From: Meandrina meandrites
Lineage: Eukaryota; Cnidaria; Anthozoa; Scleractinia; Meandrinidae
Direction: 5' to 3'
Length of the DNA: 64,000 nt
Assembly (NCBI GenBank): GCA_963693305.1
Contig: OY855910.1
Location: forward strand, 19,622,362 to 19,686,361
The position numbers were made by a program, and so were the translations under genes. This document shows, one piece after another, positions 18,301 to 58,335 of this stretch. Under the pieces are notes generated by a model. The model worked only from the letters and a program-made list of their open reading frames with translations, did no database searches and was not told the origin of the DNA. Each line of letters opens with the position of its first letter. Position 1 is the first letter of the stretch.

Positions 18301-19023
18301 CAGTAGCCTTCAAAAGACTCGGATCTTAGAGCCTCGCAACTGTGGTAACAAAACGTTATCCAACGAACCGGCTAACTGCCACTTCAGATAAACAAGATGA
18401 TCCACTGATCCGATACACAAAAAATACTACTGTCAACATTCTTTTAAAGGCTATATGAATCTTTCGACAAACATGAGCCGATAAACCTAACGAAATATGC
18501 CACAGAGCTAGAAAACACAATGGCATAAAGATTATTACTGTAACGGCACTAGAGAGCGTGAAATCCTCTGTTAAGATACTGAAGGCTTACATTTAGCGAC
18601 CAGCGGGAGCCGTTTTTGGCTTGTCACATTTTATATTTTCACTGCAGACCAATGTCTAACAAATCCCAGGGGTGCATCCCGGGGGTCTGGCACGTTCGTT
18701 TCAAAAACAAAAGAATGCCCCTACCCCGCGGGACAATTTTTTTTTTTCAAAAATGCACCATTCCCCGCATGTTCCCGGGGGTTTCCCGAGGGGAAAGCTA
18801 ATGATAAGTGCATTAAACTTAAGCTTATATTGTGGTTTGCAATTGGGGGCTATAGAAATCTTTAAACCGTTTAAAACAAACTTTAGCCACTAAAGCAGAC
18901 TTAAATACATATCAGTTTACAAAGAAGTAACAATTTTTACACTCAAACAGTCACCATGCAACAAGGAAATCTGTATTACGTCTTGCAGGCTCACTTTACC
19001 TTTTTCACGTAACTGGACGCCAT
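9353..19023 (-). CDS. NDUFA5: NADH dehydrogenase (ubiquinone) 1 alpha subcomplex subunit 5, five exons, 116 aa
   Basis: Accessory subunit of mitochondrial respiratory complex I (peripheral arm, matrix side). Exons on the minus strand: 19023-19000, 17169-17125, 11323-11207, 9907-9842 and 9451-9353, all with GT-AG introns in phase 0, totalling 351 bp including TAG; 116 residues equals the usual family length. Diagnostic segments are [14 protein letters not shown] after a short MASSYVKK start, [47 protein letters not shown], and the closing PPANQWNWP. The start ATG has A at -3 and G at +4, and the region AAAATGGCG around it resembles a YY1 site. The first exon is only 8 codons. Introns of 1.8, 5.8, 1.3 and 0.4 kb hold a minisatellite and several transposons. 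It is head to head with IARS1. No broken residues seen; identification is secure. Confidence 0.95.
10076..10108 (+). repeat. homopolymer junction T15-G18
   Basis: Fifteen T followed directly by eighteen G, inside NDUFA5 intron 3. Exact run lengths may be affected by assembly. Confidence 0.9.
10386..10796 (+). repeat. minisatellite, about 13 copies of a 31/32-bp unit with an internal hairpin
   Basis: The unit reads ATGCTTTGACACAGTATGTC plus AATCC(T)AGCAGG. Two length variants differ by one T (CCAGCAGG or CCTAGCAGG) and are intermixed. Each unit carries the inverted repeat TTGACA-CAGTA-TGTCAA. The outer copies are diverged (ATATTTGAT at the left, ATGTTGATC at the right). It lies in NDUFA5 intron 3; the 60-codon ORF across it is an artefact of the repeat. 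Confidence 0.95.
12486..12530 (+). repeat. (CCTT)n microsatellite
   Basis: About eleven imperfect CCTT/CTTC units with one TGCC interruption, in NDUFA5 intron 2. Confidence 0.9.
12856..13208 (+). repeat. direct duplication, copy 1 (about 350 bp)
   Basis: From ATTATCAGTGTCACGCGACA to AAATAGAAGCGACAAGAA. Recurs in the same orientation at 13725-14067, about 870 bp away, with scattered substitutions and short indels. Neither copy has a convincing coding frame; a 152-codon ORF in copy 2 is not conserved in copy 1. Confidence 0.85.
13725..14067 (+). repeat. direct duplication, copy 2
   Basis: Partner of 12856-13208. The spacer between the copies (13209-13724) is unique within this window. The pair could be a local tandem duplication or the direct repeats of a larger element; no TG...CA ends or target duplication are evident. 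Confidence 0.85.
15295..16095. mobile_element. 0.8-kb TIR transposon, TA target site (Tc1/mariner-like format)
   Basis: Ends are inverted repeats of about 28 bp: CCGTAAAGTTCCATGTATAA at the left and its complement TTATACATGGAACTTTACGG at the right, both flanked by TA. Just inside each end is GGGGGTGCGGCTTATCTA or its complement. It carries a decayed HIRAN-like ORF on the minus strand and no recognisable transposase, so it is non-autonomous. Confidence 0.8.
15451..15661 (-). pseudogene. HIRAN-like domain ORF remnant inside the TIR element, frameshifted
   Basis: Minus-strand translation gives [13 protein letters not shown] in one frame and then, after a frameshift near 15610, [16 protein letters not shown] and [17 protein letters not shown] in another. 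The order RGYH...W...GE.L...E..N..D..AV.V.....VG matches the HIRAN-type fold motif as I know it, and cnidarian genomes carry many such short proteins. The frame ends in a stop at 15451. It looks like cargo or the remains of an ORF mobilised by this element. Not functional as it stands. Confidence 0.55.
16586..16912. mobile_element. 0.33-kb MITE with AGGGTGCTTACCATTT terminal repeats
   Basis: Left AGGGTGCTTACCATTT, right AAATGGTAAGCACCCCT. Internally it repeats ACTTACCATTTG and has the palindrome GGACTACCTCTGGAGGTAGT. It is embedded in another repeat marked by TAATAGGGGTTC at 16309 and 16989. Target duplication unclear. Confidence 0.6.
17926..18812. mobile_element. 0.9-kb TIR element with TTA target duplication (PIF/Harbinger-like)
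   Basis: Ends TGCACTTATCATTGGCTTTC and GAAAGCTAATGATAAGTGCA are inverted; TTA flanks both sides. Three-base TTA/TAA duplications are typical of PIF/Harbinger. Internal C/G-rich blocks (CCCGGGGGTT, CCCCTGGGA) are also inverted. No transposase. Confidence 0.7.
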
Positions 19024-19107
19024 TTTGGATCGTAGTAGACACGAGAAGGCTCTTGGGTAATCTTGCGTCATCTTTGCATCTTGGGATAGGTTGAGTCTTT
19101 CGCTTCC
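19024..19107. promoter_or_regulatory. compact bidirectional promoter between NDUFA5 and IARS1
   Basis: Only 84 bp separate the NDUFA5 ATG from the upstream IARS1 ATG (204 bp to the main ATG). Visible motifs are a YY1-like AAAATGGCG overlapping the NDUFA5 start, TTGCGTCA at 19063-19070 (complement TGACGCAA, a CRE/C/EBP-ATF composite) and TTTGCATC at 19073-19080 (complement GATGCAAA, one base from the TGATGCAA core of amino-acid-response elements). No TATA box. Motif calls are by eye; binding is not shown. Confidence 0.5.
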
Positions 19108-19227
19108 ATGTGGAAGTCCCTTTCTCGAAAAAGCAGCATTTTTTTGTTCAACACTCGCAAATTTGGCAACCGTAAATTAATATCGTTTCGATTTTTTTGT
19201 GGTTTTGGTCATAACGACTCGTCCTCT
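19108..19227 (+). other. IARS1: in-frame N-terminal extension of IARS1, candidate mitochondrial presequence
   Basis: ATG at 19108 is in frame with the main IARS1 ATG at 19228 and preceded by an in-frame TAG at 19087. It encodes 40 residues starting MWKSLSRKSSIFLFNTRK, with many Lys/Arg/Ser/Phe and no acidic residue until near its end, the usual look of a mitochondrial targeting sequence. The ATG context is weak (T at -3, T at +4), which would allow leaky scanning to 19228. Whether transcripts start upstream of 19108 is unknown, so this may simply be 5' UTR. Confidence 0.4.
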
Positions 19228-22200
19228 ATGGCCGCTGGAGCTGCTGAGTACCACGACTTTCCAAAAGAGGAAGAGAATATTTTGAAGCTTTGGGAAAAGT
19301 TAGATGCATTCCAGTCTTGTTTGCGCCAGTCAAAGGATAGACCAAGGTTTGAAATATTTAATTGTACTTCTTTCCAAAGTCCTGAATCTTCTCTTGGAAA
19401 ATTCTAAAAAGTGCATTTCATGAACATTTCTGTCCTTCCTGTCTTATTCCAGGACCTGAACAATCGATGAAAATCGATGATCGGAAAATCAATCGATCAA
19501 TCGATGACAATCGATTAATTACTGTTGATTAGCATCGATTGGCATCGGCCAATCGATAATCAATCGATAATCACACTTAGGTGGTCACGAACTTCATCGA
19601 TTGCCATCGATTGGCACTATTTTGATGTCTCCGTTTCTTCAGGTATCGCGGGAGTGTACGCAGATCGTATGTTATTTTTAAACCTCAGTAGCAAAGTTTG
19701 AGAATTGTTCATCGATGTGGCTCTGTGAAAAACAGCACAAATAAAGACAATTAACATATCTCATTGTCAGTAGGACAAATATGATCGATTTAGCATCGAG
19801 ATTCAACTGACCTGCAGCTGGGCGCAGGGCACAGAGGAGTCAAGTTTGTCCGCACTTAAGCGTACGTGACCCTTCACCGCGGTCAAACGTCTGAGGATGT
19901 TTTTGTTTTCTTATTTCGAGAAAAATCATTCACGTTAACGTGGAAGCATCAGTAAGGATATGTGAAATAGCTGCCGAGGGTAAATATATTTTCAGTTCTC
20001 TCAAACGAGATTCTTTACTTTTAAAATGCTCTGCACCCGATCAAAATTGCTTTGACAATGGCGCCGACAGTCGGCATTTCGCCGTTTTCAAACGCTTAGA
20101 ACTTTTTTAGTAAAGTTCCAAAAAATTTAGTAAACCAGGAGAATACTTGTTAAGTATCAAACTTTGAACAGTGAAAATGAAAACCTTATCTTTGAAGTAG
20201 TTTTCTTATTTTTTACGTTTTACCGCGGTGAAACGTGACCCAGCGCCGTAGATCGTACCCTCATGCGACATCCGCAGAATGCAATGTCTGTGGGTGTCAC
20301 GTTACTCGGGCGACGATTTTATTCGCCCCAGGCCTAACAGGCCTAATTTGCCAGCTGGGGCTTGTTTTTCTTACACACAAATCCATAGTACGTTTCTATG
20401 AATTTTAAACTCCCACGAAACGTGTGGGTGAATAAACAAGTTTACCCATTGCTACTCGCTAGTTTTTACTCAAATAAAAAGCAATCATATCAAAATGTGT
20501 AACTTTATTAGTACTTGATGAAATTGACAATTGAATGTTTGACTGAATAGGTAATCGATTGATATTGCATATTGAAAACAATCTATTATGTTAATTGATC
20601 GATTCCCATCGATTATCGATTGATATTGATAATCGATGATAATCGATGTAGTTAATTGATCGATTCCCATCGATTATCGATTAATATTGATAATCGATGA
20701 CAATCAATAATCACACAAATTTTCGTGATCGATTGTTCATCGATTATCAATATCAATCGATTAATTGATATCGATTGTCATCGATTGTTATCGATTGCCA
20801 TCGATTATCGATTTCATCGATTGTTCAGGTCCTGCTTATTCACTTGAATAAGAGAGGGGACTGGAACTAGGGGCTGTAAAAACTATAAGAAGGTCATTCC
20901 CGGCGATATCAATAAACGGCACGCGATGCATGCAGAAGCGATGACGTTTCACAAGGGGTCTTTGATAATTTTCAGGACATTTGTCAAAAAATTAGGGTAC
21001 ATAAAAGTAACTGACAACTTCTGTGCTGAATGATTGTTCAACAAAAATTGCGTTATCTTGGCATGACATACGATATACGATATACGATGCAAGGTCGAAC
21101 GCTGTCTAAAATTGTTTACACCTTTTGTTTTAAAGAATGGAGAGATTTCTGTTTACTAAATCTTATAGAACGCATCAAATATAATTTGTTTCTTTCGTTT
21201 ATGCTTTAAATTAGTCCTTTCTAACGGCCCAGAAGTATTTTGCTTTGAGTTCTATGCGACGATTTCTTGTTGAGTTGACTTGATTTCTTTTCCCAGTATT
21301 CGGTTCGAATCTACAGATCGGTTGATCACAACAGGCAACAGACAACAGACAACAACAGATCCTGTCCACTTGCACGGCGAGATTAATCGATCACGTCATC
21401 GTCATCGCTTAAAAAAGGTTTAAAGGGGCACTGTCACGAGCATAACTTCAAAAATTCAGCAGCCCAAAAACATGTTTACACCACTGGAAACCTATTAACA
21501 GTGGTCAAGTTTTCTTAAAATTACTGTACCAGTGTATTGAAACTAAATATAGAGTGATATCACTGTGATATCATCGGGAGCTTTTGATCTCAACTTGAAA
21601 AAGTCAGCCTGATATTTTCAAGTTTTGTCCTCGTGGTTTGGAAAAATTGATGAAAACTATTTAGGTCATCATCTGCTTTAAACAATTTGCTAGGTATCCT
21701 TCCCTTTACGTTCTAGAAGCATTTCCTGCATGGTTGAAACTACTAAGTCGTAAGTTTGGCACCATTTTACTAAAAAAGCCAAAAAATATCCACGACAGTG
21801 TACCTTTAAGATGGCTTACCTTTTCAACAGATGTTTCAAAACTGCTAATAATCGGTTGCTTCGTCTGCAGTCACGACAGACATCACTTCTTAACTTTATG
21901 CCAAATTTATTCGATAACTGATAAAGTGCAACACTCACTGCAGACTCGAAATACAAATGAAATAAGGTTTGCCGATCGGTGATGATACAAGCTGCAAAAA
22001 AATATCTTCCTTTGCCAAAAAACAAGATGGCGGATCTCAAAAAGAATACAAACAATGCACCTAGTTCCCATTGCTCTTCGGTTCAATTCAGGGAGTAATC
22101 GTAACACCGTAACACCAAAAATTCCATAAATTCCATCGCTTTTCCGCTTTACAGCATTAACCGATGACGTCATAAAATGACGTCATCACTTAATAAATGA

Positions 22201-25200: not shown

Positions 25201-28200
25201 TCGCCCAAATGGCGAGTGGTCCGAAATTTTAGTTTCCAACCCTGATACTCGTTTATGAGAAAGTAGGGTTTATTTCTCTTGGGGGCTAAGCCGCATAGAA
25301 AAAAGCTGCCGTTTTGTTTATGTCCGCTTGCTTATTATGCATAAAATTCTGTGCAGTAAGGATATGGAATACAATACAGGGGAATTACCTTAAACCCAAA
25401 ACTAAGTAGTAACCCATTATTTCTGCAAAAAGAGAGAATTTAACTGAGGGATTTGCAGCACACTCATTTGTTGAAAGTTATGATAGATGAGAGTATAGTC
25501 CACGCAAATGTAACTTCTATTGCAATATATGTAGGCCAAATTTCAGAAAACTTTTCCAAAAAAAAAAGGCCCCAATGGTTCCATGTGTTCTGCTGCTAGT
25601 AAAGTGAAACATTGGCAAGTTTCCGATAGCTTTCATTCTCAAAAATTAAAATATATTTAACCAATAGATTCCATTTTGCCGTGAGTCTGTTCAGTTATAG
25701 ATCTGAACAGATGCACCGCAAAATGGAATCTGTTTGTCTTATACAATAACAAGACTTAATTCTGTACACTTCAGTATCACTAAAGTGCTGCAATGAGGTA
25801 AACAAGCAACTATTTTCGATTCCTCTGATCAGTCCAAACGAAAATTCCCTCTAGATCTTGAAATGTTTCTTTCTGACATTGTTTGGTTCTCTAGTGTAAA
25901 TTGAAATAAAAGTTCTGCCATGTAAGGACACACAAATTAAAGTGACTCTGAACTTACTGTTCGTTGAATGGGCAGAATAATACAAAGGTTTTTTTCTGCT
26001 TAATCAGGAGCCAGCATTCACAGAGCCATATTGAAATGGTCTGGAGAGACTCCTTTCCAAGGGGCTCTTCTTACTTTTCTTGAAAACTTTTGCTGCCTCG
26101 ATTTCTGCCCGGTTTATTTCGTTTCTCTGCTAGTAACTGCCCCTAAGTCTCCGAGCAATAAGTTTTTCTCCAATGTATAGCTTCCATACATCTTCATAAA
26201 CACTGTATTCAAATCAAACTCACAATGTACATGTTACAATTTACTGGACATGGCTGGTGTCCAGACTTCTCTCTTTAAATATTTACCTGTTACAATTAGT
26301 GCATAATAGTCAAAACTAAACAAAAGAAAACAATGGAATTAGTGTATAATAGTATCTAATTGTATAGTAACTAATACATGGGTTGGCAGACAATTTGGCT
26401 CTGATTTGAATTGTTTCTGAAAAACATTAATTCACAACATGCATAATTCCATGCATGTAATATTTGATTATTGTGTGGATCTTTCCATGATTTTTTGTTT
26501 CTCAGCACAATAGGAAACATGTAAATGTATAATTTACCAGCATCTGTTGTTTTTCTCCCATAATTGTAATACATGGTGTAATCTTTTACCTGTCTTTTTG
26601 GATAATAATTCAGGTACAGTTTTTATGATGGACCTCCATTTGCCACTGGCTTGCCTCATTATGGACACATCCTTGCTGGTACTATAAAGGTATGTTCATT
26701 AAGTAAACATAGTATACATTTGACATATTTGTTTAGTTCTAAAAGCAGGGCCAACAGGCACCTTTTAAGTCCTAGGTGTCCGCTTTTATACGTGGCAACA
26801 GCATGTGTAAATGGAGGTATTTCAGGTTGATCATAACTGTAGTAGTTTCCATTGAAACATTTGTTTGAAACATTACACAAGTCAGTGTTATATGGAGATG
26901 TAGAAATTGCTACGCTCTATGTAGATATGGATGAACATCGCTGACCTATTCCAACCAGAGCACCGAATGAGCCTGACCATCAACTGGTAAGGTTCATTCT
27001 CATGGCAAATATACAGGATAGGTGGCTGATTTTAATGTATAATTTGTTACAACACTAACTCAATGTTAGATTTGAATTTGCATTTTTATGAACCATTGCA
27101 AAATACATTGTAATAATTAAGTGCACATAACAATAAACATAACATTGATTCTTTTTATTAAATATTGATAAAAAGTTCTCTAAAATGTCCATGAATAAGC
27201 CTGTGATTAACTAAAAGTACGTTTTTACTGATCATCGCGTTTATGACCAGGAGTTGTTACAAAACAAGCTGTTTAGTGCAGGCCTTCAAATTGCAAATTG
27301 TTTTAGGGCTCAACTTAAACTTGTTTTACCAGTAGGCTTTATTATCACTTTATACATAGAACTAACCAAAGAACTACTTTTGTTAGCCATTAAAAAGTGC
27401 CATTCAGTTTCCAACTTTTGTGAATCAACAGAATTCAAACTTTGTTGTGTTATATTTGCACTTGCAAACTGGAGGAGGGTGTGGCTTATCTTTAGTAAAC
27501 AGTTTGTTACAATGGCTTTTCCCCTGGTTTGTTTTGAACAGTCCCCTGATTTCCAGTTTAATGTGGTGGCCAGTGTATGTCTGCTTCAAAATAAAAGATT
27601 GTTGTTGTTGCTTCACTAATTGAGGTTATGCATGTTCACAGGACATAGTCACCAGATTTGCTCATCAATCTGGTTATCATGTTCAGAGGCGTTTTGGATG
27701 GGACTGCCATGGTCTTCCAGTGGTATGATTCAACTTCTTCTTTTATTTATATGTACAGCTCTATGTATGTAAAAAGAAAGGCAAGGAGTAAATAGCTGTT
27801 TTGTAGGAGATGTTTTTCATTTAACTTAACTGAGATATTCAGATCAAGATATGAGCCTAAATATGTATCGTTCAGTGCTTTATTTATAGCTGTCATAGAT
27901 TTCTTCCAATTTCTCTCGGTCATCTTCAGTATGTCAACAAATATTTAAGCAAGCACAAAATCGACATGTGTTGGCTGGGTGGCAAGTGTTGTTCCATCAA
28001 TTTTCTTTCAAACTTTGCATGTTAACTAATTGTTTTATGTCGTTTCCAATACAATACAATACTTTACAATACTTTATTTGCCGATGGGACATTTAGGAGC
28101 GCACGTGCTGGTTAAAACATGTGCGTGAACACAAAATAGTATTAAAAGAAGAAAAATTAATAAATAAAATATAAGTACTTAACAGGCCTTCTGACAGGGT

Positions 28201-31200
28201 GCGGGGAAAAAAAGAAAATTGTGGGGGTTTTGGGAGGCAAATTGTGCGCTGAAAAACGGCGATTGTGCGGGAATTGTGCGGGACTGCGCAATCGTGTGAA
28301 CAGTCAAATATTAGTATATATGCAATTACAAGGCCCCCCCAAAAAAAACCTGACAGGAAAGAAATTCTGGATAAATGAAAAAGACAACTATTGTTTTCTT
28401 ACTTTGGCAATTAACGTTAACCAACGATCTCCATTTTGCGACTATTTTGGCCAAAGTTAATTGTATCAACAGATTCACGTTGCGTGACACGATCGATGAA
28501 GTTTTAAAACAAACCGTAATTCCACCTCGAAATAAAAGGTTTCCGATATGAACAAGTTCTACTTTGATATAATGTATATGAAATGATCCATATATGAACT
28601 GCGGATATATATGAAGGTGATATGTGATCTTCGCAGTGAATTTCCAATTTAAGCAATTGGAATAAAGAAGCCTGAAAAAAAATCAGGGCTTTAACGGGAT
28701 TCGAACCCGTGACCTCCGCGAATACCGGTGCGATGTTCTACCAACTGAGCTATGCAGCCACACATTGGGAGCGAGGTCAATTGTGAGTTCATATTTTCCC
28801 GTGAAAGGAGTGAAATGATATAATGTATATGAAATGATTCATATATGAACTGCGGATATATATGAAGGTGATATGTGATCTTCGCAGTGAATTTCCAATT
28901 TAAGCAATTGGAATAAAGAAGCCTGAAAAAAATCAGGGCTTTAACGGGATTCGAACCCGTGACCTCCGCGAATACCGGTGCGATGTTCTACCAACTGAGC
29001 TATGAAGCCACACATTGAAAAAAAATCAGGTCACGGGTTCGAATCCCGTTAAAGCCCTGATTTTTTTCAGGCTTCTTTATTCCAATTGCTTAAATTGGAA
29101 ATTCACTGCGAAGATCACTAGGGCTGCAACGATACATTTTCTTAGCAACCGATACATATCTCGGTACAGGTGCCACGATACGATACACGATACGATACAT
29201 CATAACATACAACTGACAAGTGACGTAATGTTACTAAACTGCTTTGGAATCTTTAATTTCCATTGATAACAATTAACAAATGGTAAAAATAACACAAGAA
29301 TATAACGATGTGTCTTACTCCTTGGCCATCGTAAAAAAACTTTGAATCCAAAGTCTTTCCATACCTTTGACTTATAAGAAGACAGTGTCAGTTTTAACTC
29401 AACTGCAGAGGAAGACATTTTGACGAAAGAAACAACGCCGTGACGAACGAACCGCGTGTTTTTGTTGCGGGCGCATAAGACTGTGTCAGCTGACAACTTA
29501 TTGAAACTACGCATGCTTTCGTGCCGCCATCTTGAAAAATACGTGACTGGAAGCATGCGAAGCGATACTAAGCAACGACGAAGCCCTGTGGCTAAAAAGA
29601 GGCCTGTACTTGGGTAAGGAGTCATAAAACTGATTAAAACAGTAATTTCTGAATGTTGGTAAAGTAATTTTTCATTTTTGATGAGAAATATTTTGTTGTT
29701 TTGCGATACAGCGATATCCCATTCAAATATCGATATTCGTATCGTGACAAAAAATATCGTGGTGCACCGGTGTATCGTTGCAGCCCTAAAGATCACATAT
29801 CACCTTCATATATATCCGCAGTTCATATATGAATCATTTCATATACATTATATCATTTCACTCCTTTCACGGGAAAATATGAACTCACAATTGACCTCGC
29901 TCCCAATGTGTGGCTTCATAGCTCAGTTGGTAGAACATCGCACCGGTATTCGCGGAGGTCACGGGTTTGAATCCCGTTAAAGCCCTGATTTTTTTTTTCA
30001 GGCTTCTTTATTCCAATTGCTTAAATTGGAAATTCACTGCGAAGATCACATATCACCTTCATATATATCCGCAGTTCATATATGAATCATTTCATATACA
30101 TTATATCATTTCACTCCTTTCACGGGAAAATATGAACTCACAATTGACCTCGCTCCCAATGTGTGGCTGCATAGCTCAGTTGGTAGAACATTGCACCGGT
30201 ATTCGCGGAGGTCACGGATTCGAATCCCATTATAGCCCTGATTTTTTTCAGGCTTCTTCATTCCAATTGCTTAAATTGGAAATTCACTGCGAAGATCACA
30301 TATCACCTTCAAGTTCTACTTTCTTCGATAGGCAAATTGAATATTTTCCTGTAAAGATTTACATTTTCTTCACACAAAAATGTCTTAAATTGCTGCAAAA
30401 ACCACAACAACGAGCCGAGATCAGTATGCAAATTTCTTTGCTTGCTAAATGAAATTTGACAACACTTTATTTTTAGCAAAAACTTACAGTAGATGTAAGA
30501 CAGATAAGAGCGTAGAACTTGACGTATTCCTGAATTAAAACGTCCTTCACTTGGATCAAACAAAAAAATAAACTCTGTTTCTTGATCAGATGTTAATGAT
30601 TTTCTCTTGCCCGAAGTTGCAGCGCTTTTGTTTGTCAATTCGCTAATTTGATCAGTGCGTTCGCCTTTGCGAAAATATTTTAAAAGTTGTGACAAATTGA
30701 CAGCCATTTCGGCGTAGTGATACATTGCTTCGGCCTTTCGTCTTTGCTGTCCGGTGTATATATTTAAACTGAAAGAGGAAGCGAACGCGTTGAGAAAAAA
30801 GCGGCATGATTTTTTTGAAGGAAACATGCACTTTAAACGGCGACACAGCGTTGTCTACAAAAGCTATCGCGCCGACAACTGTTGTAACAGCCAAGACGAG
30901 CGTGAAATGTCCGAGTTACACATCATTTGTTATCTATTTTAAGGATCGTTTGTGGTTTTGTTCAGAGACCGAACGAGCAAAATTAAAATAGTTGGGAAAA
31001 TATAAACACCGCCTTTTTCCACAATGTCACGCACAGGGTACCGTTCAGTAACAAATACATGTACTTCAATGTTTATATCCACTCGAGCTTTTCAGTTGCG
31101 GAAAGTGGCGGACTTCTCCATTGTTTTGGAAGATAAATAGCCTAAACATAGCCTATAAACCTTCTTGAAGTCTCGGAAATCGATAGGAATACTGATTTAA

Positions 31201-34200
31201 TTAGTTTTTTTTCAGCAAATCTTTCAATATTGTGCGGGATTTCACAGATTTTCAGGAATTGTGCGGGATTGACCGAATTGGGCGGTCCCGCACCCTGTCA
31301 GAAGGCCTGGTACTATAAAATATACATGTATGCCAAAAATAGTTATGTAAAATTAATTATTATATTATGTATTCATGAACTAACTCAGATACTACGTGCA
31401 CTCTGATTGGTCAAAAAGGTCAAAAACCTATGTTCTTTTGTACTGGTAAACTCCCTTCCCGCACTTCGCTCGACTACGCACATTTAAGGACAAATAATTA
31501 ATGAAAACAGAGGTTATGATCCTCATAAATGATCATGATGAATATTTACTGATGGTGAACTATAATAAATGTTGCCGTCCACCACAGTTGGAGCGAAAGA
31601 ACTAAGCATATAGCTAGAGGAAAAACAAAACAAAATCCAGGAACAATCATATGAGAAGGAAGACGATAAACAGTTATGTTTTCACCAGGCTAAAATGATA
31701 ATTATTAATGACATGGATATCGTTTCATTCAATATTTACTCGGAAACCTTATTTGAAAGGAAAAACTACCTCAAATTGGTGGCAATGAATATTATTTTAT
31801 TGTGATTGCAGCAACTCGCGCTGTGTCCTTGTACGTGCTTCAGTGAATTAATCCGTCTAGTTTTATGCGCTTTCAGTGCTTTCTGCGAAGTCTGTCATTA
31901 GGCGAAAATGAAAAATTACGGAGTAAAATAATAATAAATTCAAAATAAAATTTCCAAAGCAGAGTTTCTGAAACTAACCTTTATTCCAAATAACTTTTGG
32001 CAGTTTGTGCAGTTCTTCCCTTTTGTGATGAATGAATCTGGCCAAAATTTTCTCTTAAAAATAACTTAAAATCGTTGTATACATTTTCCTCCATTAACCT
32101 TGTTTGCCTTTTCCATTTCCGTTTTTAAGACTTTTCAACCCTCCAAGTTTATTTTTTTCTTTAGTGGCCATTTGGCTGCCGACTGCTCAAGGTTGGTCGC
32201 CAGTGGAAAATTTTAGTCGCTAAATTAAGCTAACGCTTTCAGTCTTCTCAATTTTAGTCGCCAGTTTGGCGACTTCTGTTCCAATTAAGTCGCCAGCTTG
32301 AAAATCGTAGTCGCCATGGTGACTAAAATGGTCTTAACTCGGAGGGTTGCTTTTACAGCTTTAAACAGAGTTTTTATACGTTTTTGGCGCATTGATTCAT
32401 GGATTTTGGTTTGGAGCTGAACCTGTGTTTTATTTGTTCAGCTGCAGTAATTGGTTTACCACTTCATTTGATGAACATTTTGAGAACAAGACACTTGACC
32501 ACAAAATATAAAATTGATTCCCATTTCTTTTTTCTCAGTGATTTACAAGCTTTTCTTGTCTTCTCCCAACATCCCGCGGGGGGGTTATTATAACCCCTAA
32601 AAAGTGTGATCTGTTATATTTAAATTGTATAAAAAGCATTATTTCATTTGAATATAAAAATAATACTTATAATGATAAAAATAATAATAAATAAATTATT
32701 AATATTTACACTTCCAATAAACTTTCAAAAGTTAAAAGATCCTTTGCGTCCCTTACAAATGGTGGTATCGAGTTCCAAGCCCTGGTGGCAATGAAGGAAA
32801 AAGACTTATGCCGCCATTCCAAATTACAGCTAGGCATCTCCAAAATTGTTCCGGTTGCCCTTAGATTAAATTAGGAGCATACTTTGATATGAAACAAATC
32901 TTGAATAAAGCTTGGAGCTTGATTATGTAAGCAATATACACTGCAAGGACTATGGCCTGAAATTTCCTATGCTGTTCTAACAAGCTTATGCCTACAGTCT
33001 TCAAAAGGAACTCATAATGAGCGTGCCTGCCAAAACCTCAAATCGATCTAATACCCCATTCACACCAACAAAACATGTTTAGTTAAACCAGGTTTAACAA
33101 AATGAAAATCAGCCACAGAAAACCAAAAGACTAAATTTTACACAGGGTTCCAGTAAGCATTAAATTGTGCTTTCACTGTGTTACATTTGAGGTTGACAAA
33201 CATCAGTTAACAACTTCTATGAGGAAAACAATTTTAAACTGTGTACAACTAAACATACTTTAAATATGTTTTAGCTTTGGTGTGAATGGGGTATAAGAGT
33301 ATAATATAGTTCGTGTCTTCTAGTTTATTAACGTGGGTGCTACCCACACCAATCGATAATGGCACACAATACTCTAAATGCGGTAACAAAATGCTTTATA
33401 TTGTCGGCCCATAACATCTGCATATTCCCTGCAAGGCAGATACTTTAGTGCATGCTTTTTCACTTGCTCCCTCACATGATTATAATCAAGTTATAATCTT
33501 TGTTTATTTATCTGATATTTTTCAATTTTTTAAGATGTAAACAATGATGTCAGCAAGGATCCATCTATAACAGCAAATCTATGAAGAAATTATTTTATTT
33601 GCATTTTAGTCTTTGTGATTAATTTAAATTTAAACAGATTCTCACAATGCTAGTTTGTTCAATCACTAAGATTCATCCACTCCCTTGCACCCACACTATC
33701 TCCCATTACTTTACCAAAACTCTCTATTGTACCAGACATAATTTGTTACTTGTGCATATTCTCCAAGTCACTCTTCAGTTGGATAACATTCATTTAACAC
33801 ACAAGTTGTACTTTATTTTTTGACAAATTTCCTGAAAATGATTCAAGACCTCCTTGTGAAATGTCATCACTTCTACATGCACTGTGTGCCGTTTATTATT
33901 AATTTTAGTGTTAGCTATTTCATGTATAGATTCTTTTGCCTCGTCTTCCAGGAATATGAAATTGATCAGAAGCTGGGTATCAAGGTAGGATTAGTTTGGT
34001 CTTCTTTCAAGTACCACTGAAGAAATTATTATAGATCATGAAATTAATGCTGAATAAACAGCATTCAAAGATACATGTAATTCAACCTGTTAGCTTTAGA
34101 CAGGCTTTTTTCATAACTGCTCATTTAACAGAAAAGGCCTTGAACAGTCATGCTGATTTCATATTATGGCATAAAAATGGTCAGATAATAAACTTTTAAG

Positions 34201-37200
34201 CAAACAGAGGAAATAGATGAAATGTAGATACTTGAGGATTAACATGGTTTCCGCTGAACATTCAAGCAATAAAGGCAAAAATAAAGTTACCAAAAAGAAC
34301 TCATAACATGGTAACAGTTTGAATACAGTTATAAGAAGGATTTAGCTCTCAAGTTATCCATATTTTGGTTGAAATGGGCATTTCACATCAGTTCATAAGA
34401 AAATAACATGCGCTTCAAGCATTTTCACGATGTTTGGCATGAATGTTCTCTGGGGTCTCAATTTCTGTAGTCTCTATGAATTAACTTAATAACAAAGGAT
34501 CACAAATTCTTCAAGTGAACACCTTTGCGCAAATCGAGCCGTTTGCACGTTTAGGGGATGTAGGGGACGCGATTCGTGCAAAGGTGTTCACTTTAAGAAT
34601 TTGCGAACCGTTGTTATTATGTTAATTCGTAGAGACTATAGAAATTGTGGGGTCACTTAGAAAAATGAACTACATTGAGGTGTTTCAAATAGAATGCAAA
34701 ATGTTTCTGTGTTATGCATAGAGTTTTGGTAATTATTAATTTTGCACTCGTTGCTCAAACTTTCAGTGGAATCCATCTTAATCTTCTGATTGTAGACAAT
34801 AGTTACATGTATGTTTTCATTTCAAGAGTCCAGATGATGTCACCAAAATGGGAATAGCTAACTACAACCAAGAATGCCGGCAGATTGTGATGCGCTATTC
34901 CAATGAATGGGAGGTGAGTTTGTGATGTTACCCTTATGATTTAATTTACATGTTAGTCTTAAACTTTTATCACATAATGCTTAACTTCAATTCATTAACA
35001 ACATTAAATGCGTGCCTCTTTTTTTTGTGACACTGCTTTTTGTCGGTGGAATATGTTTAATACATTCGAAATGTTTTGTTATCAAGGAGCATTCTTAGTC
35101 ATCAAAACATGTCAAGCAAAACATATTTTAATACTCATTAAAATTGTATGTGCTAGAAACTGTGCTGAAAACTGTTTAAATAATATGAATTGTTTTTGAA
35201 ACTAAAGCTATTTTATAAGGAACTCATTAAAAAGTCTAGCAACTGAACTGGGTGTTTTCACAACTTATAATGTTTCTGCTCTGTTTTTGTCAACTGGTTG
35301 TGTAACGCAGATAAGATCATGATTTACATGTAAGTGTTTACACAGGTGTTTTTGACTTTTAACTATCTTTATATCTAAGCCTGCTGTTGGTTCTGGTTTA
35401 AACTTGGGGTGGGGGGAGGGAGAGGGGCTGCTCTCTATGTCCCTCTCCTAGGTTGGTTCTCTACAACTATCCCCCACCCCCTTTGATTGACCATGGCAGC
35501 TTTTAGACTGGGCTCCTAACTTTTGATATCAGTACTGTAAGGGTTCCTTAATAAAAATTCCCTTTGGTAACAGGAAATATCCCCCAAATCAAATTTAGTG
35601 CATGGCATCATTTATTAGTGCAGAATGCACTATTGGAATGGTTTGGGGCCAGGCCCTATGGAGCTATGTCGTAAACTTTAATAATTATTCTTTTGGTGGT
35701 GGGGGGAGTTGGTGAGGCACTTCTGTGCACTACGTAAAACGTAGTATCAGTGTCACTTCTCATATATTGCCAAGGTTTATATTTGTTTCAGTCCGCAGTG
35801 TTCTGCCCTTGTGGTACTGTTGTTTGTAGAACGAAGTAGTTTGCCTTCAATGCATGCGCAGAAGATTGGTCTACATTAATGTCGCGTTCACTGTATTTGT
35901 GAAAGATACCACTGTCATGCTTTCAGCTGTTCTCAAACGGATTGATTCTCTCCTGTGACTTGTTTATTTCTTGCTTTCTTTGGCCTTGAAAAACGTTTAA
36001 ATTTAACGGGAAATATTCCTGAGGAATTCAACTCGGTGCGCGTTCTTGACACACATAAAATACGTGTTCGTCACAGTTTCGAATAGAGTAGAAATAAAGC
36101 TGCTACTTTCTTCGGGTCTCCGCCAGGTTTCAATCTTTGCATTGATGGATAGTGTACTAAAAAAGAAAAGAGTCCAAACCTGATTTAAGTACTCCCAAGT
36201 ATTTTTAAAGTTTATGGCAACGAACTTTCCAAATGTTGCAGCAGACTCCGTGACGCTACTGAAAGCCGGAAATTAATTTAATCACTCATTGATGATATAA
36301 CTGATTCAGAATAAACTCTCGGGAAAGTAGCACAGTTTTTTTGCATTAACGCACACTTCTTAAATCATTAATATACATCTTAAATTAAACTGGATTTAAC
36401 ATTAAAACTGATGGAACTACAGTGTTATTCTGTGACCATTTGATAATTAAACTAGTAGTAATCAGCGATTAGGGGAGTGCGTTCGACCTAAGTTAATATG
36501 CCTCAAATGGAGCGATGAGGATAAGTGGGAGCGGAATCTCATCACACAACGTTTTGAAGGAAAGATTGCGTGACGAGCCAAAAGAACATCTGTCTGCAAA
36601 ATAAAGAGCTGCGTTCCCCCTATTACGCCATCTTGTTGTTGTTGTCTTTATTATTGCGTTACTGAATATTGGGTTACTCAAGGTGAATACGCGGAACAGT
36701 GACATTAACTGAAATATGTCGCATCAAGAAATGGGTTGTGCTGTTTTCAAAGGGGTTTAATAAACTGTGAAAAAATTGTGACACTGTAGCAGTTCTTGAT
36801 ATGTTAAAGCAGAATTTTTCTTTGCTTGGGTAAAGCCATTCAAATGATGTAATACAGGTGTATTGGACCGGTCAACAGAAACATGATCTGTCATCATAGC
36901 AGTAATTGTTTGCCAAAGGTAAAAAAGAACCTCAAATAGTTAATGGAACGGCAAATAATTCTCATTGATGTCAAAATATTCATGGTAAAACAAAGTGAAT
37001 AGAAGTCGCTCCTAGCACTTCATGTGACATTCACAAAGCAAGAATGTACAAAGTCATAAATGAATGGGCAATTTGCATTCATTTCTTTTACACTAAAATA
37101 GATATGGAATAGAAATGAATTATCATGTACACGACAAATAATGATTTATTTATTTCACTTTAGTTGTTATCTTTTTATGGAAAGCCATAACTGCCTTATG

Positions 37201-46200: not shown

Positions 46201-49200
46201 AGGGGAAACTGCTTTAAAATACTCAATCTCTTCGAATTTTTTGTTTTTGAGGATGGTAAGAAGCTGCTTTATCTCTAATATTAGGCAACTTCTTCTGTAT
46301 TATGCGGAAAATGCTTTGCAGGATTTTTAAATAAAAGTCTTAAAACAGTCACACTGCCAATTGATCGCCGCCATTGCATTCTGCACTCCTTTGAGTCTCT
46401 GAGTGTTTTACCTGTTGCCTACTCTGTGTTTTTTTTCTGTTGATTCAATTAACCCTGTTATCTTTCAGTTTATTGTCAAGAGGATGGGACGATGGATTGA
46501 TTTTGACAATGACTACAAGACACTTTATCCCTGGTTTATGGAGTCTGTTTGGTAAGTTCAGTAAACAAAGTGTAATCCTTAATCTGTTTAAGACACAAAT
46601 TTATATTGTAATTTTTGTAAATGCTATGTGTCCACATTTGTTTTGAACATTCAGGTGGACATTCCAGCAGCTGTTTAATAAAAGACTAGTCTACAGGGGT
46701 TTCAAGGTATGACTGCAGCAGCTGTCTTTTTGTTGTGAATCGTAGGGAAAACTGTTGTGTGGTAACTAGAAGTATATTGTACATTGCTGTTGCTTTGATA
46801 ATAATCAAATTATGAATTTACGTATTTTTGTTATGAATATATGAAAGACATATTAATTATATGAATTGTGGATTAATGAATGACATGAATGAAATGACCC
46901 TCATAGTGTGTAAGGATCAGGATTTGAACCCATGACCTCCGCGATATATACTGGTGCATTGCTCTACCAACTAAGCTATGAAGTGAGCAACAAGTGTGAG
47001 CAACATACTGGTATCACAGAGGCCATGGGTTCAAATCCCATTGTAGCCTTGAAATTTTTCTGAGGCTAAAATGCAATTGCTTAAATTACTTACACACTAC
47101 TAGGATCATTTTATTCATTTCATAAAGTATTTTTGTTGTTGCATGTGGTTGAATCCTTAATTTTCTATCCTATGCTGTTTGATAATATGTTGTGTGATTG
47201 CATGTAGGGAGTCTGGGCCAGAAATAAAAACAAAATTAAATTAAAAACAAAATTAAATTGACAGCAAGAAGGCCAAAGGTGTACCACTTTTTATTAATCC
47301 ACATTCTTGCATGCAGTCATTATCCAACCAGAAGCCGGTGATAGCTTCCAGTTGACTTCCGGCTGGTTGGATTAAACCTGCACAAAATAATGTGTCTGAA
47401 TAAATTAAAAGTGGTCTCACTTCTGGGTTCCTTGCTTTACCTTTGGTACCATCTGGTATTTTCCTTTGTCATACATGTTTATGTTATCATAGGTTAACAA
47501 TAACCCAAAACAAAGGAAAATGGACAATTCCAGAAAATATCCATACCAAATAACAGGCTGCTTCCATATTCTAACCCCCTATTACCTTCAGAAATTCCAA
47601 AATGTATTACCCATGCCCTCTGAATCCATAATCGTTAACCCCCCTCCCCTTTGGAATTTCCATTTTTTGTCAATCCCTAAGGAATAACCTTAAGGACTCG
47701 GTAAGACTTACCACAGTTTTTCAGTTATAAGGCGCACAGATTTTTCGACAAAAGTCTGTTTTCCCTGGCAAGTTTCTGCTGTTGATTGCAGTTTTACAAG
47801 AACTTTGCAGGTACCAGTAATAAAAACAAGAATCAAAGATCTCTTCGAGATTCGACTATTTTGCATGGAGTATGAGTTGGGGAAATGTTAGTATTGAAAG
47901 CGGTTTGCGATGCATTAACCCCGGCATATCTAATCGAACAGTTCGGTAATCGAACCCAATCCAACACCAATCGTTCGATTGCTGAACTCAATCGAACATA
48001 ATCGAACTCACAATAAAATTTTGCCAATCAAACGTTTGATTACCGAACGATCAGTAATCGAACTCAATAGAACGTTCGATTACCGTACCCTTGTTCGATA
48101 GGACAATATTCACATCGCATGATAGACACGTGGTCTGTAGAAATTCAGTCTTAAGGTCAAATCACTGCTAGCTTTCCCCTTCCCTTTTCACCCGGCTTTC
48201 AGTAAAAATGTCGAAAACGTCAGGAAGCTACAAGGAGACCTGGGAGGACACTGCACGTATCAAGATTTCGTGTAGTGTAAAAGGCTACCAAGAATGTCGG
48301 TTCAGTGAAGATGTGGGAGAAGAGTTTCTCATCTATAAGAAGATCGGCTCCAATCTTTCTCTCTGTCTTTCTGTCTGTTTACAATCACATCGAAGATAAT
48401 CATATAAGCCATTTCCTATCAACACTCACAGTACATCCGTACATGAGTATCAATCGTTGACACTGACTTTGTTCTGTTCTGTTTCAACAATTATATTCAG
48501 TATGAAGTTATTTTTCTTTGTTGCCATTAAATAATTAACAACTATTCTTTGAAATCGAGGTGAATAGTGGCAGAATATTTACCGAGCCGCGTAGCGGTGA
48601 GGTAAATATTCTGCCGCTATTCACCGAGATTGAAAAGAATAATTGTTTTAGTATATACACACGAAGTGATCTCAAAACAGACAATCTGGACATTTTCAAA
48701 AGGAAACCTATGAAAGGCAATTTTATTGACGTCTAATTTGACGTCTCAATTCATGCGTGAAACACGTACAAAACTATTTACAGATTCTTTTAACATGGCA
48801 AATACACAATCTTCGATAAAATCCTCGTCAAAATGGTCCTTTGACACAGTTCAAATCGGCAACTTTAATCGAAAGTCTGCTTGGAAATCGATAACTGATC
48901 AAACAAAGTTTTCGAAGTTATCGAGAAAGGCTTGTTGTTTGGCTCATTGCGAAGGTGCTTGTCAATGGCGGCTCGAATTGAGGTGAGTGTTGCCTTGTTG
49001 TAATATGACCTGTTATATGTCTTGTTTTCTCGCGGAGATAGAAAACTTCAATTCTTCTTTTTCTATTTCCTCGATTTCGGTGAGAAATTTGTTCTGTCAG
49101 GCAAACCAGTCTACAAAAATACTCGTAATGAGGCAAATTGTAGTTGTGAAGATTAATTGCTGCCTATTTAGCGATAGGTCGAATTGATCACAGTAATTAT

Positions 49201-52200: not shown

Positions 52201-55200
52201 GGTTGTGCAGGACCCTTGCTCATTAATAAATTCATCAGCAAATTTTTTGAGGAGGTGTTATATTGTAAACGTTAAATTCTCTGAATTTTGAATATCGATT
52301 CCTTCAAAACTTATCAAGGATAATCGGGGATGATGGAATTTTTTTATGATTGTCGTTTTACTGAGAGATGACCGTTTACTTTCATGTTACAAGCTCTTAA
52401 GTGTTAATATGCAGATAATGCGATTTGGTGTCCAAGTTTCCAGCTAGAATAGCACACCAAATTAAACGACTATATAACCTAATGGTAAACCATAACCTCT
52501 TTTGTGTTCTGGCCAAAATGAATTTTGCAGATTTAAAAATTGCTGGGAGTTATTGGCTCCTAAGAGGGTAAAACAATGAAATCTAAACTTTTTGAAATTG
52601 GATTTTAAAATTTCGCTTTGACCAGAACACAATAGAGTACACCAAGTTTATGTTCCTAGTGAATCAACTCATGAAATTCTGTATCGGCGGACACAAATTT
52701 GCAGGTTTTGCCGCTTCTGAAGACCTTCCGAATCTATGTTTACAACGACGTGCGCTATATTCAAAACTGTGAATCTTATTATTATAATTTGCAACCTTCC
52801 AGCGCATGGGACACAAGGCTGTCAAAGCTGAGAACAATAACATAATTACTGATACAAAGAATGTTTAGAAATATATTCTTATGAATATTTTGTTTGTCGT
52901 CAGCTTGAGTTGTCGCAGTTTGTGCGTTCCCTTTGAATAAATGCATGCGTAATGTAGCAAGGGTCCTGCGCAGCCTTAAATACAGTACATTACTTACATC
53001 AAATTTGAAATACATCTCTTTGAGACACGTTATATTACCTAGAAAACAACAGTTACTGACATGTATAATGCGTTACTTAATTACACTACATCGCTTATTA
53101 CTTATATTACAACCCTAATATCTTGAAATACAAATTACAACTCCCATCTACTGACAATGTTACAAAATAAAAAGACTGACATACACTATTAAAACTGTGA
53201 TACATATTTATCTCTACAAAAAATCTTGCCAGTTTACGTTAAAGTGAGTGAGTTTATTCTCACTTATGGCGATGTATTTTTCGAGCTCTATTTTTTCCTG
53301 CGCGGAGATGACAAAATCCACAAACTGATATTTTTTTTTTTTTTTAGCACAGATGAACAGGAAAAACTTGCCACGAGAATAAGGTGGTTGATTGTTTGAA
53401 GCGAAGCTTGCTTTTCTAAACTTGGTAACCAAGCTACAAAATCAGTGGAGTACTGATTGTTGATAACTACACATTTGCCAGGTTACTAAGCAGTGAAGGT
53501 CTAAGCGAGAAGATGTTTTCTCCAAGTGGGTTTACGGCTTTATTAGCAGGAAATGTCAACTCTAATCCAGAAAATGTGCAAAGTAGTAATAACAACATTC
53601 ATTCAAATTTTTTTCCTGAATAGGAAAAGAAAAGTCCACAAATAAAATCACCTGTCTGTACCCTCTGGAAATCCCAGATCTGAAACCCCCCGATGCCTTT
53701 GGAATGCCAATCATTAAAGTACCCCCTCATGCCTTTGGAATCCCAGTTCAAAGAACCTCCCCTGCCCTTGAAATTCCAAAAAGCCGTCTGTTGTATGGTA
53801 TGAAGATTTTTTTCTGGAATTGCCCAATACCAAATTGTACCAAGGGTAAAATTGAACCACAGCCTATATACTGATATATATATATTCAAATAAGTATAGC
53901 AAAAAGTACATTTCAGGCAGAAGGGGGGCTCTGATAAGAAACCTTCAAAATTCCAAATAGGGGTGAGGGATGGTGACTTTATCAAACACCTCTAAATGTA
54001 AATGTTAGGGAGGCTGGGAGGGAGAATGATGTTAGATGGTTTGAGAAATCAGGGGTAAAATAACAGAGAAGTACCATCCAAGGGAAACGAAAATTGGTTG
54101 GAGAAATCATGGTTTTTCAAGAAACAAGGGTTTGGAGAAATCAGGATATATTGTAGTAAAGTAAATTGTAATTTTCATATTGCATCTTAACTTCAGGTTA
54201 TGCCATATTCTACAAGATGTAGTACTCCATTGTCAAACTTTGAATCCAACCAGAACTACAAAGAAACTATGGATCCATCTGGTAAGAATGAACCCTTATC
54301 TTTTATTTCTTCTGCAATGAAGATGCAAACCTACATTGTAGTGATAACAAGAACCCCTTTGGGTCCATAGACAGGCCTTGGAGCATTCTATCATAATTGG
54401 GATCAGTTCTCTCATTTTGATTGGTCAAGAATGTGTACTGAAGGACTCAGCAGCAATTCAAATTAGTCTTGAACAAGAGTACTTTAAAGGGACATGGTCA
54501 GCTTTGTGGCCGCACTGACCTGGACCCTAGTTTTCTCACTTTGAAAAAAGTCCACCTCAACCCGAAATCAAAAATACGCTTCGAGTACATCTCAAAATCC
54601 GCTTCAATCAATTATGCCAATGTAACGATACATACTTTGATGCATCGTACGGCGCTAGAAAAAGGATCCTGAGATTCGCACAAACAACATGCCAACTCAC
54701 AGAAAGAGTGAAAGTTGTAAAAAGGAAATTATAAAAGCAAAATATCCGATTGAAAGCAGAAATGACCGCGATCACTTGTGTTTCTCACCTCTACTGATAT
54801 TTCTTCGACTTCAGAGGCATTCGTTGACACTAGCCTTTCCCTGTACAAGTCCATCGGTAAATTCTGCATGGTTTCAATAAAATCAGTTTCTAATAATGTA
54901 ACATGTATATAACCACTACTTTGATTTGCAAATACTTCGATTCGACAAGGTTTGTTGATGCGCTTTTCAGTTTCTGTTCTTTGCTCGCACGTCTTGTGAT
55001 GAAGTGTGATATGCAAATTATCTATGAAATGGTATCTGATGCGCATGTGCACCAGCTGACCGTGTTCCTTTAAGTAACAAAAGGCATCTACCATTGCAAT
55101 TGTGCTTCACAAAGTCAAAGGCTTGGCAAGGTGGCATTCCTACCGTTCTGCCAAAGACCATTTTAGAAGGTTGAATTATGAGGCCCCTGATCTTTAACCA

Positions 55201-57462: not shown

Positions 57463-58335
57463 TCGGCTTTATGAAACTCAATTGAAAATAACTATAAGGA
57501 TGCAAATTTATGGTATTAAGATGGATTCTGCTTAAAGTTTGAGCAATAAGTGCAAAAATAAATTACCAAAAATCTCCTCATAGCACAATAACATTTTGTA
57601 TACTATTTGAAACATCTCACTTTAATTCATTTTTCTCAGTGACCCACAATTAAATTCTAAAGCATTCTCGGCAGAGTTAATGACAAATATTAACCTAGCG
57701 AAAATGCTTAAAACACGTTATTCTGTTTTGAACTTACATGAAACGGCCATTTTAACTAAAAGATGGATAACTTTGAATTGTTTTTTCTCTTGCTGGGCCA
57801 ACTTGAGAGCTTAGGTTTTGTGATAAGTTCTTCTCAATTAAATGTATTTAAGAACGGCTGACTGTTAGGACCGAGAACTCTCCGTCACTGACCTATTTGG
57901 CCAATCGCTCATATTTTGCTCAAAGATACCCTTTGGTGATATATATTTAAAAATCGTATTTAAAAGTTCCAGCGATTTTTTATTTTTCAGAAATTCACGA
58001 AAAATTGAAAACGCGGTCAAAGTGCGGTTTTCCTTCCGATCAAATGCCCAAAATATGGTGCACGGACGAAGCTACGGCAAACTCGTGAAATAGCTTCAAT
58101 TACCGCCAAACTTTACACAAAGACGGAAAAACGACTAACAAGCATCCCTAACTTGTAAAAAATCCGAAATTTGTTGAAATTGTGATTTTGCGAGCCATTT
58201 TATCAACCTCCTTGACGAGCGATTAAAATGGCGGCAAAATATAGGTCATGTTCAACAGCATAAAAATACCCCTGGTACCTCATTTTTCGATAATTTTACT
58301 TTACAGCCCTGAAATATCATTATTAAACATTCACC

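What the first reader, a model, noticed from the sequence alone, without database searches (positions are those of the whole stretch)
19108..19346. IARS1 may be dual-targeted: in-frame basic leader upstream of the cytosolic start
Seen: an ATG at 19108, preceded by an in-frame TAG, adds 40 residues (MWKSLSRKSSIFLF...) to the cytosolic-type synthetase. The leader is rich in Lys, Arg, Ser and Phe and nearly free of acid residues. Its ATG context is weak, so ribosomes could also start at 19228. Known: cnidarian mtDNA encodes only one or two tRNAs, and nuclear genes for mitochondrial aminoacyl-tRNA synthetases have been reported lost in parallel, so cytosolic enzymes should serve the organelle. Inference: one gene makes a mitochondrial and a cytosolic IARS by alternative starts.
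Basis: partly seen in the sequence, partly recalled or inferred. Interest (0 to 1): 0.8.

Follow-up and report, generated by a model that had tools for sequence, protein, structure and literature searches.

The report
Coral isoleucyl-tRNA synthetase with mitochondrial leader
A coral gene for the cell's ordinary isoleucine-charging enzyme has two start points, and the earlier one adds a conserved tag that looks like a mitochondrial address, so one gene probably serves both the cell body and the mitochondria.

Summary
ATG 19108, after an in-frame TAG (19087-19089), adds 40 codons to cytosolic isoleucyl-tRNA synthetase (IARS1), whose usual start is ATG 19228. Alone, the leader is weak evidence: shuffles give an in-frame extension of at least 40 residues in 815 of 20,000 cases. 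Comparison is strong. Of 13 relatives of the exon-1 ORF, 11 keep the leader in frame. Of 14 cnidarian IARS1 rows, 9 carry an extension of 29-55 residues; of 101 rows outside the cnidarian and sponge groups, 3 have a long one. In 12 aligned leaders 1 of 350 N-terminal residues is acidic and Arg28 stays in 11, although identity to the window falls to 20% among the 8 compared. The downstream Met is invariant there. The ileS family found only IARS1 and a ValRS gene in the window's genome, no IARS2, but no positive control ran. I conclude that this is a mitochondrial presequence on a dual-targeted IARS1. Import, cleavage and the way both forms are made remain inferred. The kind of system is known.

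The parts
19014..19028 (+). TGGACGCCATTTTGG, candidate promoter or transcription-start element
   Evidence: Sequence; translated counterparts WTPFW or WTPFC lie 93, 99 and 96 nt upstream of the leader Met in P0002, P0015, P0016 (counted by eye; 94 nt here). The role is inferred; only relatives whose upstream frame is open could be seen.
19087..19089 (+). in-frame TAG upstream of the leader
   Evidence: stop-to-stop ORF starts at 19090
19108..19110 (+). upstream ATG (long form), weak context: T at -3, T at +4
19108..19227 (+). 40-codon leader, proposed mitochondrial presequence
19189..19191 (+). codon for Arg28, aligned Arg in 11 of 12 leaders; plausible processing-peptidase site (RFF before C)
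   Evidence: the cleavage motif itself is recalled, not tested
19228..19230 (+). downstream ATG, homologous to the usual IARS1 start (cytosolic form)
19108..19346 (+). IARS1 exon 1, coding part (leader plus 119 nt)
26614..26689 (+). IARS1 exon 2 (HYGH signature motif)
27642..27722 (+). IARS1 exon 3
33952..33984 (+). IARS1 exon 4
34827..34913 (+). IARS1 exon 5
46469..46551 (+). IARS1 exon 6
46655..46706 (+). IARS1 exon 7
54197..54281 (+). IARS1 exon 8
55370..55498 (+). IARS1 exon 9
56090..56177 (+). IARS1 exon 10, last one found in the window; later exons lie beyond it

Best explanation
The 40-residue leader is a real mitochondrial presequence. The single IARS1 gene makes two proteins: a long one from ATG 19108 that is imported and trimmed near Arg28, and a short one from ATG 19228 that stays in the cytosol. 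[quoted passage not shown] Shown here: the frame, its conservation, the retained second start, and that no IARS2 was found by two profile searches. Inferred: import, cleavage, charging in the organelle, and the way both forms are made (leaky scanning past a weak first AUG, or transcription starting on either side of it).
For: Conservation: 11 of 13 relatives of the exon-1 ORF carry the leader in frame from an aligned Met; 3 more genomic ORFs do among the 10 proteins listed. Named annotated proteins with a leader: Pocillopora, Acropora, Actinia, Dendronephthya, Xenia; 9 of 14 cnidarian rows in all. Character kept while sequence drifts: among 8 rows compared, leader identity to the window goes down to 0.20 while the next 40 residues stay at 0.80 or more; over the 12 aligned leaders only 1 acid in 350 N-terminal residues, and Arg28 in 11 of 12. 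A simple neutral model at 0.31 identity leaves the frame open in 23% of runs and, when open, gives 1.5 acids in the first 30 residues. Contrast: the N-terminal 40 residues of the cytosolic form in 117 rows have mean net charge 0.35, maximum 3. Both starts kept: Met41 invariant in the 14-row alignment; residue 2 excludes G at +4 in 24 of 25 upstream starts and requires it at 17 of 25 downstream starts. Leader and enzyme in one intron-free ORF: P0029, 1211 residues in a contig of at most 4015 bp, while the window gene spreads its first ten exons over 37 kb. No IARS2 found. [quoted passage not shown]
Against: Amphipathic helix strength is no better than in shuffles: mean z 0.48, 13 of 21 leaders above their shuffle mean, window z -0.18. 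Five of 14 cnidarian rows lack a leader as listed: Oculina patagonica, Desmophyllum, Nematostella and P0112 start at Met41, and P0062 has only 8 residues with net -1; 2 of 13 rows start at Met41. The window (near Oculina, 269 of 277 residues) and P0002 (near Desmophyllum by its N-terminus) suggest annotation misses for two of these; the rest are unexplained. Acid-freeness is not universal: P0075 and P0097 have 2 acids each in the first 25 residues and P0010 has 1, P0017 has 1 at residue 18. Leaders of octocorals and of the P0047/P0075/P0097 rows were not aligned to the coral ones, so one origin is not shown. No import or proteome data, no targeting predictor, mtDNA of this species not seen. 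The neutral model has no indels and the rows are related, several near-duplicates.
Confidence: 0.86

Rival explanations
1. The two proteins come from two transcripts. A promoter upstream of 19108 gives the long mRNA and a second start between 19108 and 19228 gives the short one, as for the yeast ValRS and HisRS genes, rather than from one mRNA by leaky scanning.
For: Both AUGs have T at -3, so the context difference is small. P0062, an intron-free ORF of a cnidarian relative, has only 8 residues upstream of the usual Met. The alternative-transcription route is documented for yeast synthetases (PMC7600831, section 7 part 1).
Against: Judged from residue 2, the upstream AUG can have G at +4 in only 1 of 25 rows while the downstream one has it in 17 of 25, which fits leaky scanning; but +4 G is also usual at the start in the controls (68 of 105), so this is weak.
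Confidence: 0.4
2. The leader is a 5' untranslated stretch that happens to be open and basic, with no function.
For: For one sequence this is possible: 815 of 20,000 shuffles give an in-frame extension of at least 40 residues, and shuffled leader DNA that stays open (5,479 of 20,000) has mean net charge +3.9. The listed Oculina patagonica protein starts at Met41.
Against: Frame, charge and Arg28 held over leaders that differ from the window at up to 80% of residues; annotated in five named cnidarian genera; read as one ORF with the enzyme in an intron-free contig (P0029).
Confidence: 0.05
3. The leader is a signal for another place (secretion) or a part that docks IARS1 in the multi-synthetase complex, not a mitochondrial presequence.
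For: Helical moment is unremarkable; an N-terminal extension can bring a synthetase-like protein into the complex (PMC6794377, title and start of abstract seen in the listing only).
Against: Best 10-residue hydropathy mean is 1.63 in the window and at most 1.85 in any leader, low for a secretion signal (yardstick recalled). Basic, mostly acid-free in its first part, an Arg kept before a small or aromatic stretch, poor sequence conservation with kept charge: the usual profile of a presequence (recalled).
Confidence: 0.07

Closest known systems
Human GARS1 (glycyl-tRNA synthetase), one gene, two AUGs by leaky scanning
   Same: Upstream in-frame AUG in a weak context gives the mitochondrial form; a downstream AUG makes the cytosolic enzyme (PMC12718117, passages).
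   Different: Different enzyme. In human only two synthetases are shared (PMC7600831), GlyRS and LysRS (PMC4394434, passage). Here it is IleRS, and no mitochondrial-type gene was found.
Arabidopsis AlaRS, GlyRS, ValRS, ThrRS with two AUGs
   Same: Upstream AUG adds 39 to 56 residues that act as presequence (PMC7600831, section 7 part 1).
   Different: Plants, tested with fusions; not IleRS.
Trypanosoma brucei IleRS
   Same: One IleRS gene serves cytosol and mitochondria (PMC7600831).
   Different: The presequence is added by trans-splicing.
Sileneae cytosolic synthetases retargeted after loss of mitochondrial tRNA genes
   Same: Loss of mt-tRNAs with predicted gain of mitochondrial targeting on cytosolic synthetases, some by alternative transcription starts (PMC10375062, passages).
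   Different: Plants with ongoing loss; plastids likely require the organellar genes to be kept.
Haen, Pett and Lavrov 2010, Nematostella synthetases (Mol Biol Evol 27:2216)
   Same: From memory of the abstract: all but one cytosolic synthetase of Nematostella appeared to be targeted to mitochondria.
   Different: Paper not held, so not checked. In the listings, and the passages I opened from them, I saw no statement on a two-start IARS1 in corals, octocorals or other cnidarians; those searches cover open-licence papers only.

Membership tests
Cytosolic-type isoleucyl-tRNA synthetase (IARS1) | class Ia synthetase core of the eukaryotic cytosolic type | tested here: met
   PF00133 E 1.3e-71 on the 10-exon model; 269 of 277 residues identical to the Oculina patagonica protein P0026, which groups with named animal cytoplasmic IleRS.
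Cytosolic-type isoleucyl-tRNA synthetase (IARS1) | HIGH and KMSKS motifs | tested here: met
   HYGH in exon 2; KMSKR in an exon downstream of the window on the same contig, L006.
Dual-targeted synthetase by two in-frame starts (GARS1-like) | upstream in-frame AUG that adds a presequence-like peptide | tested here: met
   with the helix test not passed
Dual-targeted synthetase by two in-frame starts (GARS1-like) | downstream AUG kept for the cytosolic form | tested here: met
   Met41 invariant in all 14 rows of A1. The 25 leader rows also have it, but there the leaders were cut at it.
Dual-targeted synthetase by two in-frame starts (GARS1-like) | mature mRNA contains both starts | tested here: inconclusive
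   Suggested for a relative (P0029, intron-free contig); no RNA data for the window's species.
Dual-targeted synthetase by two in-frame starts (GARS1-like) | both proteins are made and one is in mitochondria | not testable with these tools
   needs localisation or proteomics
Dual-targeted synthetase by two in-frame starts (GARS1-like) | no separate mitochondrial IleRS gene | tested here: inconclusive
   PF00133 (10 matches, 15 of 15 candidates scored) and TIGR00392 (6 matches, 6 of 18 candidates scored) hit only IARS1 and a ValRS gene. The positive controls (TrpRS, mitochondrial PheRS) got no answer, and no LARS gene was seen with PF00133 either, so sensitivity is limited.
Mitochondrial presequence | net positive, almost no acidic residues | tested here: met
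   net +7 here; 1 acid in 350 residues over 12 leaders; among other leaders P0075 and P0097 have 2 acids in the first 25 residues
Mitochondrial presequence | amphipathic helix | tested here: not met
   moment not above composition shuffles: mean z 0.48 over 21 leaders, window z -0.18; a crude test, true presequences were not run as a control
Mitochondrial presequence | Arg at -2 or -3 of a cleavage site | tested here: inconclusive
   Arg28 kept in 11 of 12 leaders; cleavage not shown

The most novel reading that the evidence does not exclude
Two animal lineages that lost mitochondrial tRNA genes, cnidarians and keratose sponges, independently put a presequence on the same cytosolic enzyme, IleRS. 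The keratose sponge Dysidea avara also has a basic, acid-free extension (MRRFTVLPYWRVCFGQLVKRK) before the usual start, while 4 of 4 other rows in the sponge group do not. A leader on IARS1 would then be a readable genomic mark that a lineage charges imported tRNA-Ile inside mitochondria.
Probability: 0.45. Interest if true: 0.65.

Novelty: new member of a known kind. Interest (0 to 1): 0.5.

Why it matters
How mitochondria with one or two tRNA genes stay supplied with charged tRNAs is an open problem in cnidarians. A tag such as this one suggests that the enzyme itself is imported, so that imported tRNAs can be charged inside, rather than only ready-charged tRNAs being imported. The layout gives a simple bench test in Nematostella or Xenia and a reason to check the other synthetases. 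It also suggests that automated annotation drops the leader in some corals (the listed Oculina patagonica and Desmophyllum proteins start at Met41), so surveys that use annotated N-termini can miss dual targeting.

Tried and rejected
Helix amphipathicity as support: not borne out, leaders are not above composition shuffles. Single-sequence chance argument: too weak to carry the case. Pseudogene or decaying duplicate (prompted by Q for E at model residue 120 and R for G at 210): not supported, since the window has 1 unique change at 277 columns otherwise invariant in cnidarians, within the 0 to 11 seen in the 12 other rows. DNA of relatives for Ka/Ks: viral contigs gave one short match (L001, 57% over 23 residues), no use. 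Reading Haen 2010: not held. Positive controls for the IARS2 search (TIGR00233, TIGR00469) never got an answer.

Rows dropped or treated apart: the 8-residue extension of P0062 was printed but left out of the 25 leader rows. P0034, P0076 and P0091 (long extensions in a spider, a tardigrade, a moth) were left out of the cytosolic control and of the +4 control and are the 3 of 101. P0137 (starts without Met) was also left out of the +4 control. Two further rows (P0020, P0022, unnamed short IleRS) also have long stretches before the conserved part; they are not in the 120 and were not followed. P0006 and P0025, P0013 and P0029, P0017 and P0027, P0003 and P0004 are near-duplicates, so the 25 leader rows are fewer independent observations. 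In one search, 21 leaders were used (P0004, P0006, P0013, P0017 left out as near-copies, P0062 as too short). P0097 is only 578 residues long. Only 32 rows were put in the tree; the other rows among the 101 were taken by name or are unnamed.

Full report
What is there. At 19108 an ATG follows an in-frame TAG (19087-19089) and opens 40 codons that run into ATG 19228. From 19228 the frame reads [22 protein letters not shown]..., the start of cytosolic isoleucyl-tRNA synthetase. The window holds only this first quarter. In the own genome the window is contig C8:19622362-19686361 of a 551-Mb assembly, and further IARS1 exons 84-100% identical to the Oculina patagonica protein follow downstream. 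Over 277 shared residues the window differs from that protein at 8, so the host is probably a close relative of that stony coral.

Is it more than chance? Alone, hardly. Shuffles of the 600 bases before 19228 gave an in-frame extension of 40 or more residues in 815 of 20,000 cases and one as basic and acid-poor in 77. The leader DNA when shuffled is open in 5,479 of 20,000 cases, with a mean net charge of +3.9, and open with net +7 or more and at most one acid in 605. A T- and A-rich stretch makes basic peptides easily.

Conservation decides it. A search with the exon-1 ORF found 13 relatives besides the window itself. Eleven carry the leader in frame from an aligned Met; two (P0008, P0014) begin at Met41. 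A second search, with the joined model and residues 1-90 scored, listed 10 proteins, of which three (P0015, P0016, P0017) are further genomic ORFs with the leader. A third, with the query padded to 999 residues, listed the best 120 of 5,024. I printed the N-termini of all 120. Usually the Met lies 40-50 residues before [10 protein letters not shown]. Thirteen rows have it at 57 or more: nine cnidarians, the sponge Dysidea avara, and three others (P0034 spider, P0076 tardigrade, P0091 moth). The spider and moth stretches are acid-rich; the tardigrade one is basic (net +6 over 66 residues).

Which rows are cnidarian was settled by a tree of 32 of the rows: 14 rows form a group with support 100/100, eight named and six unnamed; Dysidea sits with four other rows in the sponge group. 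Of the 14, nine have an extension of 29-55 residues: Pocillopora meandrina, Acropora digitifera, Actinia tenebrosa, Dendronephthya gigantea, Xenia, and four unnamed (P0029, P0047, P0075, P0097). Five do not as listed: Oculina patagonica, Desmophyllum pertusum, Nematostella vectensis and P0112 begin at Met41, and P0062 has only MDKSDALI before it. For the first two the window and P0002 suggest that the annotation missed the leader. For the other three I cannot tell. Outside the cnidarian and sponge groups, 3 of 101 rows are extended; most of those 101 were not placed in the tree and are taken by name or are unnamed.

What is conserved. Among 8 leader rows of alignment A1 compared with the window, identity falls to 0.20, while the following 40 residues stay at 0.80 or more. 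Over all 12 leader rows only 1 of 350 residues in the first 30 or so is acidic, and Arg28 is kept in 11 of 12. Outside this alignment P0075 and P0097 have two acids each in the first 25 residues and P0017 has one. A simple neutral simulation at mean identity 0.31 keeps the frame open in 23% of runs and, where open, places 1.5 acids in the first 30 residues, none in 22%. The model is crude: no indels, no tree. By contrast the N-terminal 40 residues of the cytosolic form in 117 rows have mean net charge 0.35 and at most +3. The hydrophobic moment does not help: mean z 0.48 over 21 leaders, window -0.18.

Two starts. The downstream Met is invariant in the 14-row alignment although its neighbours vary. 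Judged from residue 2, the upstream AUG could have G at +4 in only 1 of 25 leader rows, and the downstream AUG has it in 17 of 25; in controls it is 68 of 105. In the window both AUGs have T at -3. This fits leaky scanning but does not exclude two transcription starts. P0029, a 1211-residue ORF without introns in a contig of at most 4015 bp, shows leader and enzyme joined in what is most simply cDNA, in a relative.

Why a mitochondrial leader makes sense. [quoted passage not shown] Its cnidarian taxa are Nematostella, Gorgonia, Aurelia and Hydra, no stony coral, and TrpRS of the mitochondrial type was not found in the octocoral. In the window's genome PF00133 gave 10 matches (15 of 15 candidates scored) and TIGR00392 6 matches (6 of 18 scored); all lie in IARS1 on C8 or in one locus on C2, of which three pieces were scanned and best match valine--tRNA ligase. 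So no IARS2 was found in this coral. The limits are that the search goes exon by exon, that not all candidates were scored, that no LARS gene was seen with PF00133, and that the planned positive controls never ran. I did not see the mtDNA of this species.

Place among known things. Two in-frame starts on one synthetase gene are documented for human GARS1 (PMC12718117, passages) and Arabidopsis AlaRS, GlyRS, ValRS, ThrRS, and one shared IleRS in trypanosomes by trans-splicing (PMC7600831, section 7 part 1). Retargeting after mt-tRNA loss is described in Sileneae plants (PMC10375062, passages). From memory, Haen et al. 2010 already reported that all but one cytosolic synthetase of Nematostella appear targeted to mitochondria; the paper was not held. 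The idea is therefore known. What is added is the layout in corals, its spread over Anthozoa and further cnidarian rows, its absence from some annotations, and a possible parallel in a keratose sponge. Dysidea avara belongs to Keratosa; the keratose sponge Ircinia has two mt-tRNA genes, Met and Trp. For Dysidea itself neither mtDNA nor IARS2 was checked, and it is a single gene model.

Verdict.

Noticed in passing
window 38729-42268, minus strand: 1179-residue open frame of a Ty3/gypsy-like retroelement (reverse transcriptase, RNase H, integrase zinc-binding domain) inside IARS1 intron 5, on the opposite strand.
   Followed up: partly
window 37176-37562 and 44072-44481; 42365-42894 and 43475-44076: Long inverted repeats, 97-98% complementary: one pair brackets the retroelement, the other forms a palindromic stretch beside it, as if the element sat in a foldback-like repeat.
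   Followed up: partly
window 57847-59227 and 61812-63244: A second set of long inverted repeats, 97-99% complementary, downstream of IARS1 exon 10, presumably in the next intron.
   Followed up: no
window 19450-20830: Intron 1 carries many copies of an ATCGATTG-type short dispersed motif (read by eye).
   Followed up: no
window 28936-29009, minus strand: ARAGORN reports one tRNA-like hit with a four-base anticodon, probably spurious.
   Followed up: no
window 2882-4444, plus strand: Open frame of 520 codons without any Pfam match, perhaps an exon of an uncharacterised upstream gene.
   Followed up: partly
protein P0062 (cnidarian row): Only 8 residues (MDKSDALI) precede the usual Met, unlike its near relative P0047 with 55; an alternative 5' end, a short contig or real loss of the leader.
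   Followed up: no
protein P0076 (tardigrade Hypsibius): A 66-residue basic extension (net +6) before the usual IARS1 start in one of the listed Hypsibius proteins; other Hypsibius rows lack it.
   Followed up: no
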